From an uncultured Oscillospiraceae bacterium (lineage in GTDB: Bacteria; Bacillota; Clostridia; Oscillospirales; Oscillospiraceae), in NCBI GenBank assembly GCA_934668295.1, contig CAKUND010000022.1, positions 1 through 17,526 on the forward strand: a stretch of 17,526 nucleotides of DNA, in the 5' to 3' direction. Positions 816-14,726 of the stretch are shown here, in pieces (within the stretch, counting starts at the first letter, position 1; each line of letters starts with the position of its first letter). The position numbers were made by a program, and so were the translations under genes. The notes below the pieces were generated by a model, which was not told where the DNA came from, did no database searches, and saw only the letters and a list, made by a program, of their open reading frames with translations.

Positions 816-844
816 ATTATAGTACACGCAGCCAAAAGCCGCAA
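816..844 (-). promoter_or_regulatory. sigma-A-type promoter of the GNAT / TIGR04076 pair
   Basis: On the minus strand there is a perfect -10 box TATAAT (816-821), with TTGCGG as -35 (839-844) and a 17-nt spacer. The start would fall near 809, about 18 nt before the gene's ATG. The -35 box lies inside the 3' arm of the terminator hairpin that ends the pst operon, so terminator and promoter share DNA. The -35 match is only moderate (TTG conserved). Confidence 0.6.
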
Positions 845-1359
845 GCCCGCTTCCGGGCCTGCGGCTGCACAGCCAGCGCCCGCGCGATGCAAAGCCGCTG
901 CTGCTGTCCGCCCGAGAGGCCCAGCGCGCTTTTTTTCAGCCGGTCCTTGACCTCGTCCCAGATCGCCGCGCCGCGCAGCGACTGCTCGACGATCTCGTCC
1001 AGCTCGTCCTTTCTGCGCACACCGTGCGTCCGGGGGCCATAGGCAATGTTGTCGTAAATGCTCATGGGGAAAGGGTTCGGCTTCTGGAAGACCATGCCGA
1101 TCTCGCGCCGCAGCTCGTTCACGTCCACAGACGGCGCGAAGATATCCTGCCCGTTGTATTTGACCTCGCCCTCAATGCGCACGCCCGGGATCAGATCGTT
1201 CATGCGGTCGAGCGTCTTGAGAAACGTGGATTTGCCGCAGCCGGAGGGGCCGATGAGAGCCGTGATGCTCTTTTCGGGGATGTCCATCGACACGCCCTTG
1301 AGCGCCTTCGTCTGCCCGTACCAGAGCTGCAGGTCTTTGACTGTGATAATATCGTTCAT
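817..1359 (-). pseudogene. pstB: Phosphate ABC transporter ATPase PstB, C-terminally truncated
   Basis: PstB is the ATPase of the PstSCAB high-affinity phosphate importer and normally has about 250 residues. This frame gives 180. Present are the Walker A motif GPSGCGKST (37-45), the Q-loop region [19 protein letters not shown] (90-108) and the ABC signature LSGGQQQR (148-155). After ALAVQP (161-166) the similarity stops abruptly. The last 14 residues are encoded by the terminator hairpin and following DNA, not by pstB. Walker B, the D-loop and the switch histidine are missing, so it cannot hydrolyse ATP. The start overlaps the upstream pdx-like fragment by ATGA and has an AAAGGAA ribosome binding site. 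phoU, usually the next gene, is absent. One deletion from pstB through phoU to the operon terminator would explain this. Confidence 0.85.
834..866 (-). terminator. intrinsic terminator of the pst operon
   Basis: A 13-bp stem (837-849 with 854-866, one G-U pair in RNA) closes a 4-nt loop and is followed on the minus strand by TTTT. It sits inside the last codons of the truncated pstB. It was probably the original operon terminator, brought next to pstB by a deletion. Confidence 0.65.
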
Positions 1360-1625
1360 ACACGAGTTCCTTTCAATACCGGCTCGAAGGCCAGCCCGTA
1401 CCAGTGGCCGGGCTGCCGCTTGGCCGTTTCATGGATGCAGCTGTCGCAGAAATCCGCCGCGCGTAGCAGCGCCGTCTGCGGCGCCTGCCTGCTCAGCAGC
1501 TCACCGCTCAGTGCGCTGGTAAATACGTCGCCCGCGCCGTGCACGGTCATATCGACAGCTTCCTTCTGCACGAGCGTCACGCGCCCGTCCAGCCGCGCCA
1601 GGCCGCAGGGGGTGACAGCCTTCAT
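1356..1625 (-). pseudogene. C-terminal fragment of a pyridoxine/pyridoxamine-kinase-like protein
   Basis: The 89 residues resemble the C-terminal third of PfkB/ribokinase-superfamily pyridoxal-type kinases (normally about 280 residues). The key motif is VHGAGDVFTSAL (28-39): the GAGD anion hole with the catalytic aspartate, followed by the helix ALLRAADFCDSCI and a closing YGLAFEPVL. The substrate-binding N-terminal two thirds are absent. The ATG overlaps the stop of the permease gene (ATGA), and the stop overlaps the pstB start (ATGA), so it sits tightly inside a phosphate operon, an unusual place for it. The first few residues (MKAVT) could be a real kinase start joined to the C-terminus by an internal deletion. 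It is probably non-functional. ThiD-like or other ribokinase relatives are possible alternatives. Confidence 0.6.
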
Positions 1626-2485
1626 TGCTGGCTCCGTTTCTGGATCTGTTTTCCGACGATCCCGGCGGCAAGATTGATGAGCAGCGTTAAGATCATAAGG
1701 ATCGCCGCGATGGCGAAGGCAACGTCAAACTCGCCCTCCTCCTTCGCGTAGGCGTACAGCGCGACTGTCAGCGTCGCGCCGGGGCTGGCAAGCCCGATCA
1801 CGAATTTGTTCAGCGTGTGGGCAAAGCCTGCCGTGAACAGCAGCGCGGCGGATTCACCCAGAATACGGCCCGCAGAGAGGATGCAGCCGGTCACAATGCC
1901 GTCGATGCACCCCGGCAGCACGACCGTACGCACCACACGCCACTTGCCCGCGCCGAGGCCGAACGCGCCCTCGCGGTAGCTCTGCGGGACGGTCCGCAGG
2001 CTCTCCTGCGTTGTACGCAGGACGGTCGGCAGGTTCATAATGACGAGCGTCAGCGCGCCTGCAAGCAGACTCGTCTGCATGCCGAGAAATTCACAGAAGA
2101 ACAGCATGCCGACCAGACCATAGACGACCGACGGAATGCCCGCCAGCAGGCTGACCGCCGATTCCATCACAGTGCGAAGCTTTTTCGGGGCCATTTTGGA
2201 CAGGAACACCGCTGTCAGGAACCCGACCGGCACGCCGAGCAGGATCGCGCCGCACGTGCCGTATACGCTGGTGAGGATGAAGGGGAGAATGCCGTATTTC
2301 GGCTCGGCGGCCGTCGAGGCCCATTCGCTGCCGAACAGGAACTTTCCAAGGCCGATCTTTGTGATGGCCGGCAGGCCGGACAGGATCAGGTACACGGTGA
2401 TCAGCAGCACGCACCCAACTGTGACCAGACCCAACAGGAGGAAGACGCCGTGTACGACGTCTTCCATTGTCTGTTTCTTTTTCAT
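1622..2485 (-). CDS. PstC-PstA chimeric phosphate ABC transporter permease
   Basis: A 287-residue membrane protein with about six hydrophobic segments. Residues 1 to about 115 look like PstC: TM at 13-36, then FLFGSEWASTAAEPKYGILP and TSVYGTCGAILLGVPVGFLTAVFLSK, both typical of PstC. From about 130 onward it looks like PstA: EFLGMQTSLLAGALTLVIMN, TTQESLRTVPQSYREGAFG, LGAGKWRVVRTVVLPG, and the end LINLAAGIVGKQ. The switch falls in LLAGIPSVVYGLVGM (113-127), a stretch shared by both subunits, so homologous recombination between the paralogues would give exactly this in-frame fusion. The transporter normally needs a PstC/PstA heterodimer, and no second permease is present here. It follows pstS by 1 nt and overlaps the next fragment by ATGA. 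If functional at all, it would have to act as a homodimer. Confidence 0.75.
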   Translation of the reverse strand: MKKKQTMEDVVHGVFLLLGLVTVGCVLLITVYLILSGLPAITKIGLGKFLFGSEWASTAAEPKYGILPFILTSVYGTCGAILLGVPVGFLTAVFLSKMAPKKLRTVMESAVSLLAGIPSVVYGLVGMLFFCEFLGMQTSLLAGALTLVIMNLPTVLRTTQESLRTVPQSYREGAFGLGAGKWRVVRTVVLPGCIDGIVTGCILSAGRILGESAALLFTAGFAHTLNKFVIGLASPGATLTVALYAYAKEEGEFDVAFAIAAILMILTLLINLAAGIVGKQIQKRSQQ

Positions 2486-2486
2486 A

Positions 2487-2801
2487 TCAGCCGTTCACCG
2501 GGACAGCACCGGCGGAGGTGATGTACTGGGCTGCTTCCGCACTCAGAGCGAAGTCGAAGAACTTCTGTGCGTTGGCGCAGAGGGTCTCGCCGGTCTTGGT
2601 CACGAGGACGAACGGACGCTGGATCACATAGCTGCCTTCCTTTTCCTTGAACGCCTCGCCGAGCGTGCCGATGACCTTTTCTATCGAGGTCGAGCCGTCG
2701 GTCGTGACAGGGGAGGTGTCCTTCTTCGCGCAGCCGGCCAGCGTCAGCGCGGCAAGGGCAATGACAAGTACAGTCGTCAGAAGTTTGTTCATCTTTTTCA
2801 T
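2487..2801 (-). pseudogene. pstS: Phosphate-binding lipoprotein PstS with a large internal deletion
   Basis: PstS captures phosphate outside the cell for the Pst importer and usually has 270-300 residues; this frame encodes 104. The N-terminus is intact: a lipoprotein signal peptide (KKMNKLLTT then a hydrophobic core) with lipobox TLAGC (C24), then TTDGSTSIEKVIG (33-45), the first phosphate-binding loop. The C-terminus is also typical: GSYVIQRPFVLVTK (56-69) and FFDFALSAEAAQYI, ending SAGAVPVNG. The join is near residues 50-55 (GEAFKEKEG) and is in frame. The missing 160 or so residues include the other phosphate-binding loops and the hinge. The ATG has a GGAG ribosome binding site 9 nt away; two upstream extensions lack one. 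Probably dead as a phosphate receptor. Confidence 0.75.
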
Positions 2802-2931
2802 TTTGATGATCTCCTTTTTGATTTGTTTGACATCTCGTCTACGGTCAAAAGAATACTGCCGCCGTCTAAAATCCAAAAGCAGGATCCGGTAAAACTGCGG
2901 TCAAACTTTACGCCGCAATGTTAAATCGCGC

Positions 2932-13157: not shown

Positions 13158-13766
13158 TTATTCCCCAAACAGGTATTTTTTCAGCGCCTGCAGCAGCTCC
13201 AGAGAGCGGAACTTGACTGCATACGCGCCGTTTGCGCGCGTCATCAGGCCGATCTCGGCGTCTGTAAAGCCGCCCGCCGCGGCGGCATCGGCGAAGCCGT
13301 CTGCTGTGGCCGGGACGCAGAGCGAGGGGAAGATCACGCACCACCAGTTGTGTCCCGCACCTTCCCCGATGGTCACACGCAGCGACCGGTACACGCCGGA
13401 CGGCAGCGAAAATGTGTCATACTCGCGTGTCGGAAACAGCTCACGGCGGAAGCTGACGCGGGCGGTCTCCCCGCAGCCCTGCCGCCGGAGCTCCGCGTTT
13501 GCCGCGGCTTCGAGCGCGGGGAGCTGCGCCTCGATCGCCTGCTTCGCGTCGGAAGCGCCGGAAAGCACGGTCTGCACCTCGCGCAGAACCGCGTCGCGCA
13601 CGCAGAGCTTCACGGCCTGATCCGCGCCGGAATCGGAATTTGCCACGACGTGCAGGCGGATGATCTTTTCTGCCATGCGCTGGCTCTGCGCCTGCAAAAC
13701 GGCGCAGGCCGTGACGGTAAGTACACTGATGCCCAGCAAAACAAGAGAAATGATCCGTTTTTTCAT
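13158..13766 (-). CDS. spoIIR: Stage II sporulation protein R (SpoIIR)
   Basis: SpoIIR is the forespore-made signal that triggers SpoIIGA to process pro-sigma-E in the mother cell. The 202 residues show an N-terminal membrane/export segment (about 5-24), the family motif IRLHVVANSDS (36-46), the VKLCVRDAVL helix (52-61), and the hallmark LPSGVYRSLRVTIGEGAGHNWWCVIFP (121-147, in pieces). The ATG at 13766 is used: the ribosome binding site AGGCGG is 8 nt upstream, and a GTG three codons earlier overlaps it. That ribosome binding site lies in the 3' arm of the ispE terminator hairpin, and a sigma-F-like promoter overlaps the 5' arm. In B. subtilis spoIIR is sigma-F-dependent, which fits. Confidence 0.95.
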   Translation of the reverse strand: MKKRIISLVLLGISVLTVTACAVLQAQSQRMAEKIIRLHVVANSDSGADQAVKLCVRDAVLREVQTVLSGASDAKQAIEAQLPALEAAANAELRRQGCGETARVSFRRELFPTREYDTFSLPSGVYRSLRVTIGEGAGHNWWCVIFPSLCVPATADGFADAAAAGGFTDAEIGLMTRANGAYAVKFRSLELLQALKKYLFGE

Positions 13767-13814
13767 AAAAAACACCGCCTAAACTGCTTTTGCAGACAGT
13801 TTAGACGGTGTTTT
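13767..13814 (-). terminator. ispE terminator whose hairpin contains the spoIIR ribosome binding site
   Basis: AAAACACCGTCTAAACTG pairs with CAGTTTAGGCGGTGTTTT (18 bp, one G-U in RNA) around a 10-nt loop, ending in six T (13772-13767) directly before the spoIIR ATG. It starts 7 nt after the ispE stop. Confidence 0.9.
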
Positions 13815-13826
13815 GCTGGTTTATAC
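13797..13826 (-). promoter_or_regulatory. candidate sigma-F promoter of spoIIR
   Basis: Minus strand: GTATA (13826-13822, matches GYATA), a 15-nt spacer, then GTCTAAACTG (13806-13797), which matches GGNNANAHTR at all but the second position. The -35 overlaps the ispE stop codon. The predicted start (about 13790) is in the hairpin loop, so the transcript would lack the 5' arm. Confidence 0.55.
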
Positions 13827-14726
13827 GGTCTTTGCCAGGAAAATCTGGCTGTATTTGTCCTTGAGCATCGTGCAGGCGACGGTCGCGTATTCAAACGAAT
13901 CGTAGATCCCGAACACGGCGGAGCCGGAGCCGGTCATCTGCGCGCCGTACGCGCCGTAGGTGTACATCATGGAGCGGATATAATTGATGTCAAAATGCTT
14001 CTGCATGACGACGGGCTCAAACACGTTGCACAGGCTGCCGCCGATGCCGAGCAGCTCGCCCTTCTGGAGGTTCAGCTGCATGGCCTTCTGATCCGGACGC
14101 TTTTCGATGAACGTCTCGTCGAGCGCACGGTACAGCTCCGGCGTGGAGACGGAAAAGTCCGGCTTGCAGATCACGACGAAGAACTCCGGCGCGGGGGGGA
14201 GCCGCGTCAAAAGCTCCCCACGGCCTTCGACCAGCGCCGTGCCGCCCATGACGCAGAACGGCACGTCGGAGCCGACCTGCGCGCCAAGCTCGCAGAGCGC
14301 GGGAATGGACAGGGGACTGTCATACGCGCGGTTCAGTGCCCGCAGGACGGCTGCCGCGTCGGCGCTGCCGCCGCCGAGACCGGCCTCGAGCGGGATGCGC
14401 TTGTTGATGAAGATCTCCAGTCCCTCCGGGGCCTTCCCGATACGGGCATAAAACGCCTCGGCGGCCTTCCACGCAAGATTGTCCCTGTCCTGCGGCAGGC
14501 CACAGGTGACGAGCTCCGGCTCGGTATGTCCGTCCGCATCCGGCGGCAGAACCTCGCGGTAGCAGTGAATCTGCCAGCCCTCACAGCCGACCGTGACGTG
14601 CACGTCGTCATGCAGGGAGACGGTCTGCATGATGGAGCGGAGATTATGATAGCCATCCTCGCGCCTGTCCAGAACATCCAGCGTCAGATTGACCTTGGCA
14701 AATGCGCCTTCGGTAAGCTCCTTCAT
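13821..14726 (-). CDS. ispE: 4-diphosphocytidyl-2-C-methyl-D-erythritol kinase IspE
   Basis: IspE phosphorylates CDP-ME with ATP in the non-mevalonate (MEP) isoprenoid pathway. This is a 301-residue GHMP kinase with the usual order: AFAKVNLTLDVLDRREDGYH (8-27) containing the catalytic lysine K11, the GHMP ATP-binding loop PLEAGLGGGSADAA (112-125), and GAQVGSDVPFC (148-158) with the catalytic aspartate D154. The C-terminal GSGSAVFGIY motif is also present. The length is normal. Its ATG overlaps the stop of the DUF1015 gene (TAATG), so translation is coupled. It is probably transcribed from the thrH promoter and ends at the terminator before spoIIR. Confidence 0.95.
   Translation of the reverse strand: MKELTEGAFAKVNLTLDVLDRREDGYHNLRSIMQTVSLHDDVHVTVGCEGWQIHCYREVLPPDADGHTEPELVTCGLPQDRDNLAWKAAEAFYARIGKAPEGLEIFINKRIPLEAGLGGGSADAAAVLRALNRAYDSPLSIPALCELGAQVGSDVPFCVMGGTALVEGRGELLTRLPPAPEFFVVICKPDFSVSTPELYRALDETFIEKRPDQKAMQLNLQKGELLGIGGSLCNVFEPVVMQKHFDINYIRSMMYTYGAYGAQMTGSGSAVFGIYDSFEYATVACTMLKDKYSQIFLAKTV

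What the first reader, a model, noticed from the sequence alone, without database searches (positions are those of the whole stretch)
13764..13826. Terminator, sigma-F-like promoter and spoIIR ribosome binding site nested in one hairpin
Seen: the ispE terminator (18-bp stem, six T) ends exactly at the spoIIR ATG, and the only spoIIR ribosome binding site (AGGCGG) is in its 3' arm. A sequence matching the sigma-F consensus at all but one position (GTATA, 15 nt, GTCTAAACTG) overlaps the 5' arm and would start RNA in the loop. Known: spoIIR is a sigma-F gene in B. subtilis. Inference: vegetative read-through from ispE is stopped, and any that escapes hides the ribosome binding site. Forespore transcripts lack the 5' arm, so the site is free. 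This would be a compact, promoter-choice-dependent translation lock that keeps a key intercompartment signal silent until forespore sigma-F acts.
Basis: partly seen in the sequence, partly recalled or inferred. Interest (0 to 1): 0.75.

Follow-up and report, generated by a model that had tools for sequence, protein, structure and literature searches.

The report
Promoter inside a gene-blocking RNA hairpin
In a group of spore-forming bacteria, the DNA just before a key sporulation signal gene appears to be at once a stop sign for stray RNA, a cover over the gene's translation start, and the spore-specific switch whose own RNA escapes both blocks; the pattern is conserved in many relatives but has not been tested at the bench.

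Summary
On the minus strand the ispE stop is followed by a hairpin (18-bp stem, one G·U) whose U-tract ends at the spoIIR ATG. Its 3' arm holds the only Shine-Dalgarno (SD) sequence. GTATA-N15-GTCTAAACTG, a forespore-type promoter, places its -10 in the 5' arm. The promoter recurs with a 15-nt spacer in 75 of 81 close loci (window included) and 56 of 63 family loci outside the training set. The arms covary. The element stays with spoIIR in 11 of 15 loci where ispE is not adjacent. Upstream sequence locks the spoIIR start beyond its own shuffles in 69 of 81, 51 of 63 and, class-wide, 18 of 48 loci, against 2 of 30 gpr and 2 of 72 ispE starts; sigG gives 15 of 30. Of 57 element matches in 101 genomes, 49 lie at spoIIR. 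The mechanism is of a known kind (phage T4 gene e; B. subtilis sigG read-through hairpin). What looks new is its use at spoIIR, its fusion with an intrinsic terminator, and its depth of conservation. No transcript was mapped; start site, termination and translation effects are inferred.

The parts
13821..14726 (-). ispE, upstream gene (isoprenoid precursor pathway)
   Evidence: TIGR00154 213.6 bits; ORF
13158..13766 (-). spoIIR, forespore signal gene
   Evidence: TIGR02837 152.7 bits; ORF (listed there from the GTG at 13775)
13822..13826 (-). -35 element GTATA (overlaps last ispE codon and stop)
   Evidence: sequence; position weight matrix; kept when unlinked from ispE
13797..13806 (-). -10 element GTCTAAACTG of forespore-type promoter
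   Evidence: 15-nt spacer, matrix score 21.5 bits, (the window is in the training set)
13797..13814 (-). 5' arm of the hairpin; contains the -10
   Evidence: fold; covariation
13787..13796 (-). loop; predicted forespore transcript start near 13790
   Evidence: inferred from the -10 position; not mapped
13769..13786 (-). 3' arm of the hairpin
   Evidence: fold; covariation
13773..13780 (-). Shine-Dalgarno AGGCGGTG (interrupted by a C)
   Evidence: anti-SD duplex -9.6 kcal/mol
13767..13772 (-). T6 tract of the terminator, ending at the start codon
   Evidence: sequence
13764..13766 (-). spoIIR ATG

Best explanation
The 63-bp ispE-spoIIR junction is a promoter-choice lock. RNA polymerase coming from ispE makes the whole hairpin, so most transcripts end at the U-tract, and any that pass carry the spoIIR SD buried in an 18-bp stem. 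Forespore RNA polymerase (sigma-F, perhaps also sigma-G) uses the promoter whose -10 lies in the 5' arm and starts RNA in the loop. That RNA has only the 3' arm, so it neither terminates nor hides its SD in that stem, and spoIIR is translated. Shown: sequence, folding energies, conserved promoter spacing, covariation, specificity for spoIIR. Inferred: sigma factor, start site, termination, translation effect and biological purpose.
For: Promoter: 56 of 63 family loci not used in training exceed the 99th percentile of shuffles, all 56 with a 15-nt gap; 78 of 81 in the training set (75 with 15); 31 of 48 class-wide (23 with 15). Lock (cost of opening -17 to +12 in RNA from -120 minus RNA from -28): median 14.4 against 2.4 kcal/mol shuffled in the 81, at most 5 of 100 shuffles reaching in 69 of 81; 51 of 63 family; 18 of 48 class; window 18.9, 0 of 100. 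With 10 near-duplicates (a shared 50-mer) removed: lock 64 of 76, 47 of 58, 18 of 48; promoter 73 of 76, 51 of 58, 31 of 48. Controls: gpr 2 of 30, ispE 2 of 72. Duplex between promoter and downstream sequence reached by at most 2 of 200 shuffles: 74 of 78, 51 of 54 and 13 of 31 loci with a promoter, overlapping the -10 by 5 or more bases in 137 of those 138. Covariation: 131 cells changed on both sides against a mean of 26 and a maximum of 46 in 2000 whole-arm swaps, 82 arm pairs; tool control 0 of 500 shuffles, 67 of the 82 pairs. G·U 62 against A·C 8 outside the fixed promoter positions (63 against 13 over all), so the mRNA-sense strand is the folded one. SD strength of the 3' arm median -9.4 kcal/mol in 108 loci, between ispE -7.85 and gpr -10.55. 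The element stays with spoIIR without adjacent ispE in 11 of 15 loci. 49 of 57 model matches in 101 genomes lie at spoIIR.
Against: No transcript ends, termination or translation data for any of these organisms were at hand. In short-transcript minimum-energy folds 5 or more SD bases are still paired in 52 of 69, 38 of 49 and 8 of 13 locked loci with a promoter, though the opening cost (median 7.4, 144 loci) is like that of ispE (7.9) and gpr (8.9). The SD is atypical (GGA-C-GG). 12 of 81 close, 12 of 63 family and 30 of 48 class loci show no significant lock; 5 of the 18 locked class loci have no promoter match. The element is absent in 4 of 15 loci without adjacent ispE, and 47 of 101 genomes gave no model match (strict filters). 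Another forespore gene, gpr, lacks both the lock and, mostly, this promoter motif (1 of 30). Relatives are not independent samples.
Confidence: 0.77

Rival explanations
1. It is simply an efficient ispE terminator; promoter and SD were packed into it because the intergenic space is short. Termination alone matters and hiding the SD has no function.
For: The T-run is usual (52 of 81 close loci have the SD arm followed by T). In 11 close and 3 family loci the 3' arm lies upstream of the SD (at least one, L059, by start assignment), so there a terminator encloses the promoter while the SD is outside the core stem.
Against: Where ispE is not adjacent the element stays with spoIIR in 11 of 15 loci. 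Some relatives pair the -10 with the start codon, SD or early codons without a U-tract after the stem (L056, L065, L239, L244). Pairing of the start region is far beyond shuffles while gpr and ispE starts are near chance.
Confidence: 0.14
2. The inverted repeat is a DNA site for a repressor or other protein, not an RNA structure.
For: It is an inverted repeat that overlaps a promoter.
Against: G·U pairs 62 against A·C 8; loop lengths vary widely, with long loops in L067 and L070; the 3' arm ends at SD and U-tract in most close loci. Covariation alone would not tell RNA from DNA.
Confidence: 0.03
3. The hairpin limits spoIIR translation or RNA stability at all times, also in the forespore (as the small B. 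subtilis sigG RBS hairpin does), because the true start lies upstream of the hairpin.
For: PMC5942855 shows a small RBS hairpin that dampens sigG translation before and after the switch (passages read). One search lists two sigma-70-like hexamer pairs on the minus strand inside ispE (2 found, 0.7 expected by shuffling).
Against: The forespore-type promoter lies within the 5' arm with fixed spacing, so RNA from it lacks that arm. Conserved promoters beyond -150 were not sought.
Confidence: 0.05

Closest known systems
Bacteriophage T4 gene e (lysozyme) leader
   Same: Long early transcripts hide SD/start in a helix; late promoters lie in the region of the 5' strand of that helix, and their transcripts are well translated (PMC3014915, passages read).
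   Different: Phage late promoter, and no intrinsic terminator in the passages read; here forespore-type promoter, terminator fused, cellular developmental gene.
Bacillus subtilis sigG (spoIIIG) read-through hairpin
   Same: A large hairpin is proposed to block translation of read-through from the spoIIG operon and cannot form in RNA from the sigG promoter (PMC5942855, passages read; it cites Masuda 1988 and Sun 1991, which I did not read).
   Different: Different gene (sigma factor, not the SpoIIR signal); no terminator described in the passages read. In this family sigG also scores as locked in 15 of 30 genomes.
Intrinsic (Rho-independent) terminator
   Same: G+C-bearing stem followed by T6.
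   Different: The 5' arm also carries a -10 element and the 3' arm an SD, so a transcript started within it would escape termination (inferred).

Membership tests
Promoter-choice translation lock (T4 gene e / sigG type) | Long transcript buries SD or start codon in a helix | tested here: met
   By folding: window ddG 18.9 kcal/mol, 0 of 100 shuffles; 69 of 81 and 51 of 63 loci
Promoter-choice translation lock (T4 gene e / sigG type) | Stage-specific promoter lies in the 5' strand of that helix | tested here: met
   By sequence conservation: -10 overlapped by the duplex in 137 of 138 significant loci; sigma use not shown
Promoter-choice translation lock (T4 gene e / sigG type) | Short transcript made in vivo and translated better than the long one | not testable with these tools
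   Needs 5'-end mapping and reporters
Sigma-F type forespore promoter | -35 GTATA-like, about 15 nt, -10 with a conserved upstream G and A, A, T | tested here: met
   B. subtilis consensus letters recalled; the C. difficile rule (G on the upstream side for sigma-F, A on the downstream side for sigma-G) read in PMC3789822 passages
Sigma-F type forespore promoter | Transcription depends on sigma-F | not testable with these tools
   No expression data
Intrinsic terminator | Stable stem plus U-tract | tested here: met
   not listed by the scan because of its loop limit
Intrinsic terminator | RNA 3' ends at the U-tract | not testable with these tools
   No Term-seq data
Known Rfam RNA family | Match at gathering score | tested here: not met
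   0 matches in the window

The most novel reading that the evidence does not exclude
Across Clostridia the two forespore decision genes spoIIR and sigG are guarded by promoter-embedded translation locks that were re-made several times with different partners (SD, start codon, early codons), and in Oscillospiraceae and kin the spoIIR lock was merged with a terminator so that one 18-bp arm is read as promoter -10, terminator arm and anti-SD at once. The SD itself is bent to fit, split by the C that pairs with the fixed G of the -10.
Probability: 0.5. Interest if true: 0.75.

Novelty: new variant of a known kind. Interest (0 to 1): 0.62.

Why it matters
SpoIIR is the forespore signal that leads to sigma-E activation in the mother cell, so leaky expression in vegetative or predivisional cells could start the mother-cell programme in the wrong place (established B. 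subtilis knowledge, recalled). A lock opened only by transcript start choice would give compartment control of translation with no extra protein. It also suggests that read-through from neighbouring genes is a selective problem for such signals, which can be tested with simple reporters, and it supplies a compact triple-coded part (promoter, terminator and SD cover in about 60 bp).

Tried and rejected
Own genome: none is held, so genome-wide background in this organism could not be made; relatives were used instead.

A DNA operator reading was considered and rejected on G·U against A·C counts and variable loops.

The idea that T at -10 position 2 (consensus G, recalled) is forced by the SD was tested: 91 of 97 loci with the SD in the arm have T, 6 of 14 with the arm upstream of the SD (Fisher p 1.5e-5). 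But 10 of 17 class loci with a promoter and no such helix also have T, and relatives are not independent, so I do not rely on it.

The first automatic sorting by 3'-arm type over-called 'START' because duplexes were extended into the gene; one search replaced it. A few loci there labelled start codon or coding (L011, L018, L057, L069, L080, L111, L112, L116, L125) look like a start codon taken slightly too far upstream, and L059 like one taken too far downstream.

The T-run count used the outermost pair and is not used. gpr as a source of the forespore motif gave 1 of 30; sigG gave 10 of 30.

The first removal of duplicates (9 loci) missed 10 loci that share a 50-mer with another one (L001 with the window, L013, L025, L045, L049, L092, L111, L119, L131, L140); one search gives the counts without them, and the picture is the same.

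Literature: no paper was seen that describes this at spoIIR. The searches that bear on it are (spoIIR with hairpin, 3 papers; spoIIR with terminator, 8 papers; spoIIR with stem-loop, 1 paper), besides. Of these papers I saw passages of PMC5942855, PMC7438776 and PMC3789822, and for the parallel of PMC3014915; the rest only as listings. One search lists 25 of 3,807 papers, none with spoIIR, and tells nothing about absence. Only an open-access library was searched.

Full report
What is there. All features are on the minus strand. The last codon and stop of ispE (GTA TAA) contain GTATA (13826-13822). Fifteen bases later comes GTCTAAACTG (13806-13797), the end of an 18-base arm whose partner (13786-13769) runs into T6 and the spoIIR ATG. 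The sense-strand fold is -33.7 kcal/mol, z -7.5, 0 of 200 shuffles as good. RNA from the loop folds at -7.2, no better than shuffles. On the sense strand the stem has a G·U where the other strand would have A·C. Four of the six T are within the 18 bp.

Relatives. The closest genome locus is L001 (Ruminococcaceae RUG14158; SpoIIR 92%, IspE 97% identical). I used 192 distinct spoIIR starts, the window among them (202 gathered, 1 without a start codon, 9 duplicates dropped): 81 'close' (the window, the best 80 of 367 relatives less one duplicate, and L083), 63 'family' (30 best by score and 40 of the other listed rows, less 7 duplicates), and 48 'class' (30 best and 20 of the other rows, less one duplicate and one without a start). 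L081 (copy of L001) and L082 (stored in the other orientation) were left out. Ten more loci share a 50-mer with another locus; counts without them are given below.

Promoter. A two-box matrix trained on the 81 gives GTATA-N15-GTCCATACTG; 78 of 81 exceed the shuffled 99th percentile, 75 with a 15-base gap. In the 63 family loci not used for training 56 exceed it, all with 15; class-wide 31 of 48, 23 with 15. Without near-duplicates: 73 of 76, 51 of 58, 31 of 48. The same kind of site (GG[CA]AATACTG) lies before sigG in 10 of 30 genomes; the matrix finds a site before gpr in 1 of 30 and before ispE in 2 of 72. C. [quoted passage not shown] passages). I therefore say forespore promoter, sigma-F likeliest.

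Is the -35 only the ispE stop? No. It keeps its place when the stop is elsewhere (L005, L007, L011, L015, L018, L021, L070). In 15 loci where ispE is not found or ends more than 145 bases upstream, the element is present in 11 (L004, L020, L027, L054, L055, L056, L059, L065, L066, L069, L080) and absent in 4 (L058, L068, L072, L079). L020 has GTTTA in place of GTATA; L056 and L065 have the start-codon form described below. L266 (G082) has the element before a short SpoIIR-like beginning that then runs out.

Lock. I computed the cost of opening -17 to +12 in RNA from -120 minus that in RNA from -28, against 100 dinucleotide shuffles of the upstream part. At most 5 of 100 shuffles reach the observed value in 69 of 81, 51 of 63 and 18 of 48 loci; the window has 18.9 kcal/mol and 0 of 100. 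Without near-duplicates: 64 of 76, 47 of 58, 18 of 48. Controls: gpr 2 of 30, ispE 2 of 72, sigG 15 of 30. The best duplex between promoter and downstream sequence is reached by at most 2 of 200 shuffles in 74 of 78, 51 of 54 and 13 of 31 loci that have the promoter. Of the 18 locked class loci, 13 have the promoter match.

Covariation. For 11 pairs in 82 distinct arm pairs (those with 9 or more pairs; 11 of 132 loci had fewer), 832 of 902 cells pair against a mean of 662 and maximum of 699 when whole arms are swapped; cells changed on both sides number 131 against a mean of 26 and maximum of 46. The 3' partner was placed by one free offset, which favours pairing. The tool's own count on 67 of the 82 agrees, 0 of 500 shuffles on all five measures, and every slid register is far worse. 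The fifth base of the -10 is A in 82 of 82 although its partner is T in 59: promoter and stem are separate constraints.

Architectures. Close: SD in the 3' arm 57 of 81 (52 with a T-run); arm upstream of the SD 11; start codon or coding 7 (several look like start-codon misassignment); promoter without helix 3; no promoter 3. Family: SD in arm 40 of 63; upstream 3; start codon or coding 5; no helix 6; no promoter 9. Class: no promoter 17 of 48, no helix 17, the other 14 varied. In L056 and L065 the -10 region pairs with the start codon and no U-tract follows; in L239 with early codons; in L244 with the SD. These cases argue that hiding the start matters apart from termination.

SD. The 3' arm typically reads GGA-C-GGTG, an SD interrupted by a C, with a median anti-SD energy of -9.4 in 108 loci, against -7.85 for ispE and -10.55 for gpr (anti-SD letters recalled). 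The C pairs with the fixed G of the -10; my reading is that the SD is split to allow this.

Specificity. Model R1 (47 close loci, window excluded, L001 included) finds the window element at 58.7 bits. In 101 family genomes it gives 64 rows, 7 of them the opposite strand of the same place, so 57 places in 54 genomes (strict filters, 52 first-look candidates scored in each listed genome). 35 agree with spoIIR positions, and 14 more have SpoIIR downstream by a profile (two of them weakly, L274 and L276). The other eight: L266 (relict), L272 (before a sugar-nucleotide-transferase-like gene), L283 (before a secreted-protein-like gene), and five that look like plain terminators (L278, L279, L282, L284, L285). 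47 of 101 genomes had no match at this threshold.

Known parallels. T4 gene e (PMC3014915, passages) and B. subtilis sigG (PMC5942855, passages) are described as working in the proposed way. I saw no paper in the open-access library describing it for spoIIR (above all; the papers listed there were seen as listings except PMC5942855 and PMC7438776). In PMC5942855 the one mention of spoIIR is in the reference list. Subscription papers were not searched.

Limits. Start site, termination and translation are inferred. Short transcripts still pair part of the SD in many loci (52 of 69, 38 of 49, 8 of 13), though opening cost is ordinary. Samples are related and partly chosen by score. Bacilli spoIIR was not examined.

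Noticed in passing
L184-L213, e.g. L195, L200, L190: sigG starts in the same family also have the SD region paired to upstream sequence that includes the forespore promoter (15 of 30 significant), like the B. subtilis sigG read-through hairpin.
   Followed up: partly
L272 (G048) and L283 (G081): The same GTATA / -10-in-hairpin arrangement before a sugar-nucleotide-transferase-like gene and before a secreted-protein-like gene (names by eye from the translation): possible further locked forespore genes.
   Followed up: partly
L266 (G082): The spoIIR leader and about 15-20 codons remain, then the sequence runs into what looks, by eye, like an addB-type gene: a likely fossil of spoIIR loss (no TIGR02837 match in G082).
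   Followed up: partly
window 817-2876: Phosphate-transport genes look scrambled: a pstA-like gene, an ABC ATPase gene with an odd end, a kinase fragment between them, and a short PstS-like lipoprotein without a Pfam match; no pstC noticed (names pst by eye). Misassembly or decay.
   Followed up: no
L221, L233, L237 and L222, L226: Class-level relatives where the promoter spacer pairs with AGGGGGAA (the SD), or the -10 region pairs with early codons of spoIIR.
   Followed up: partly
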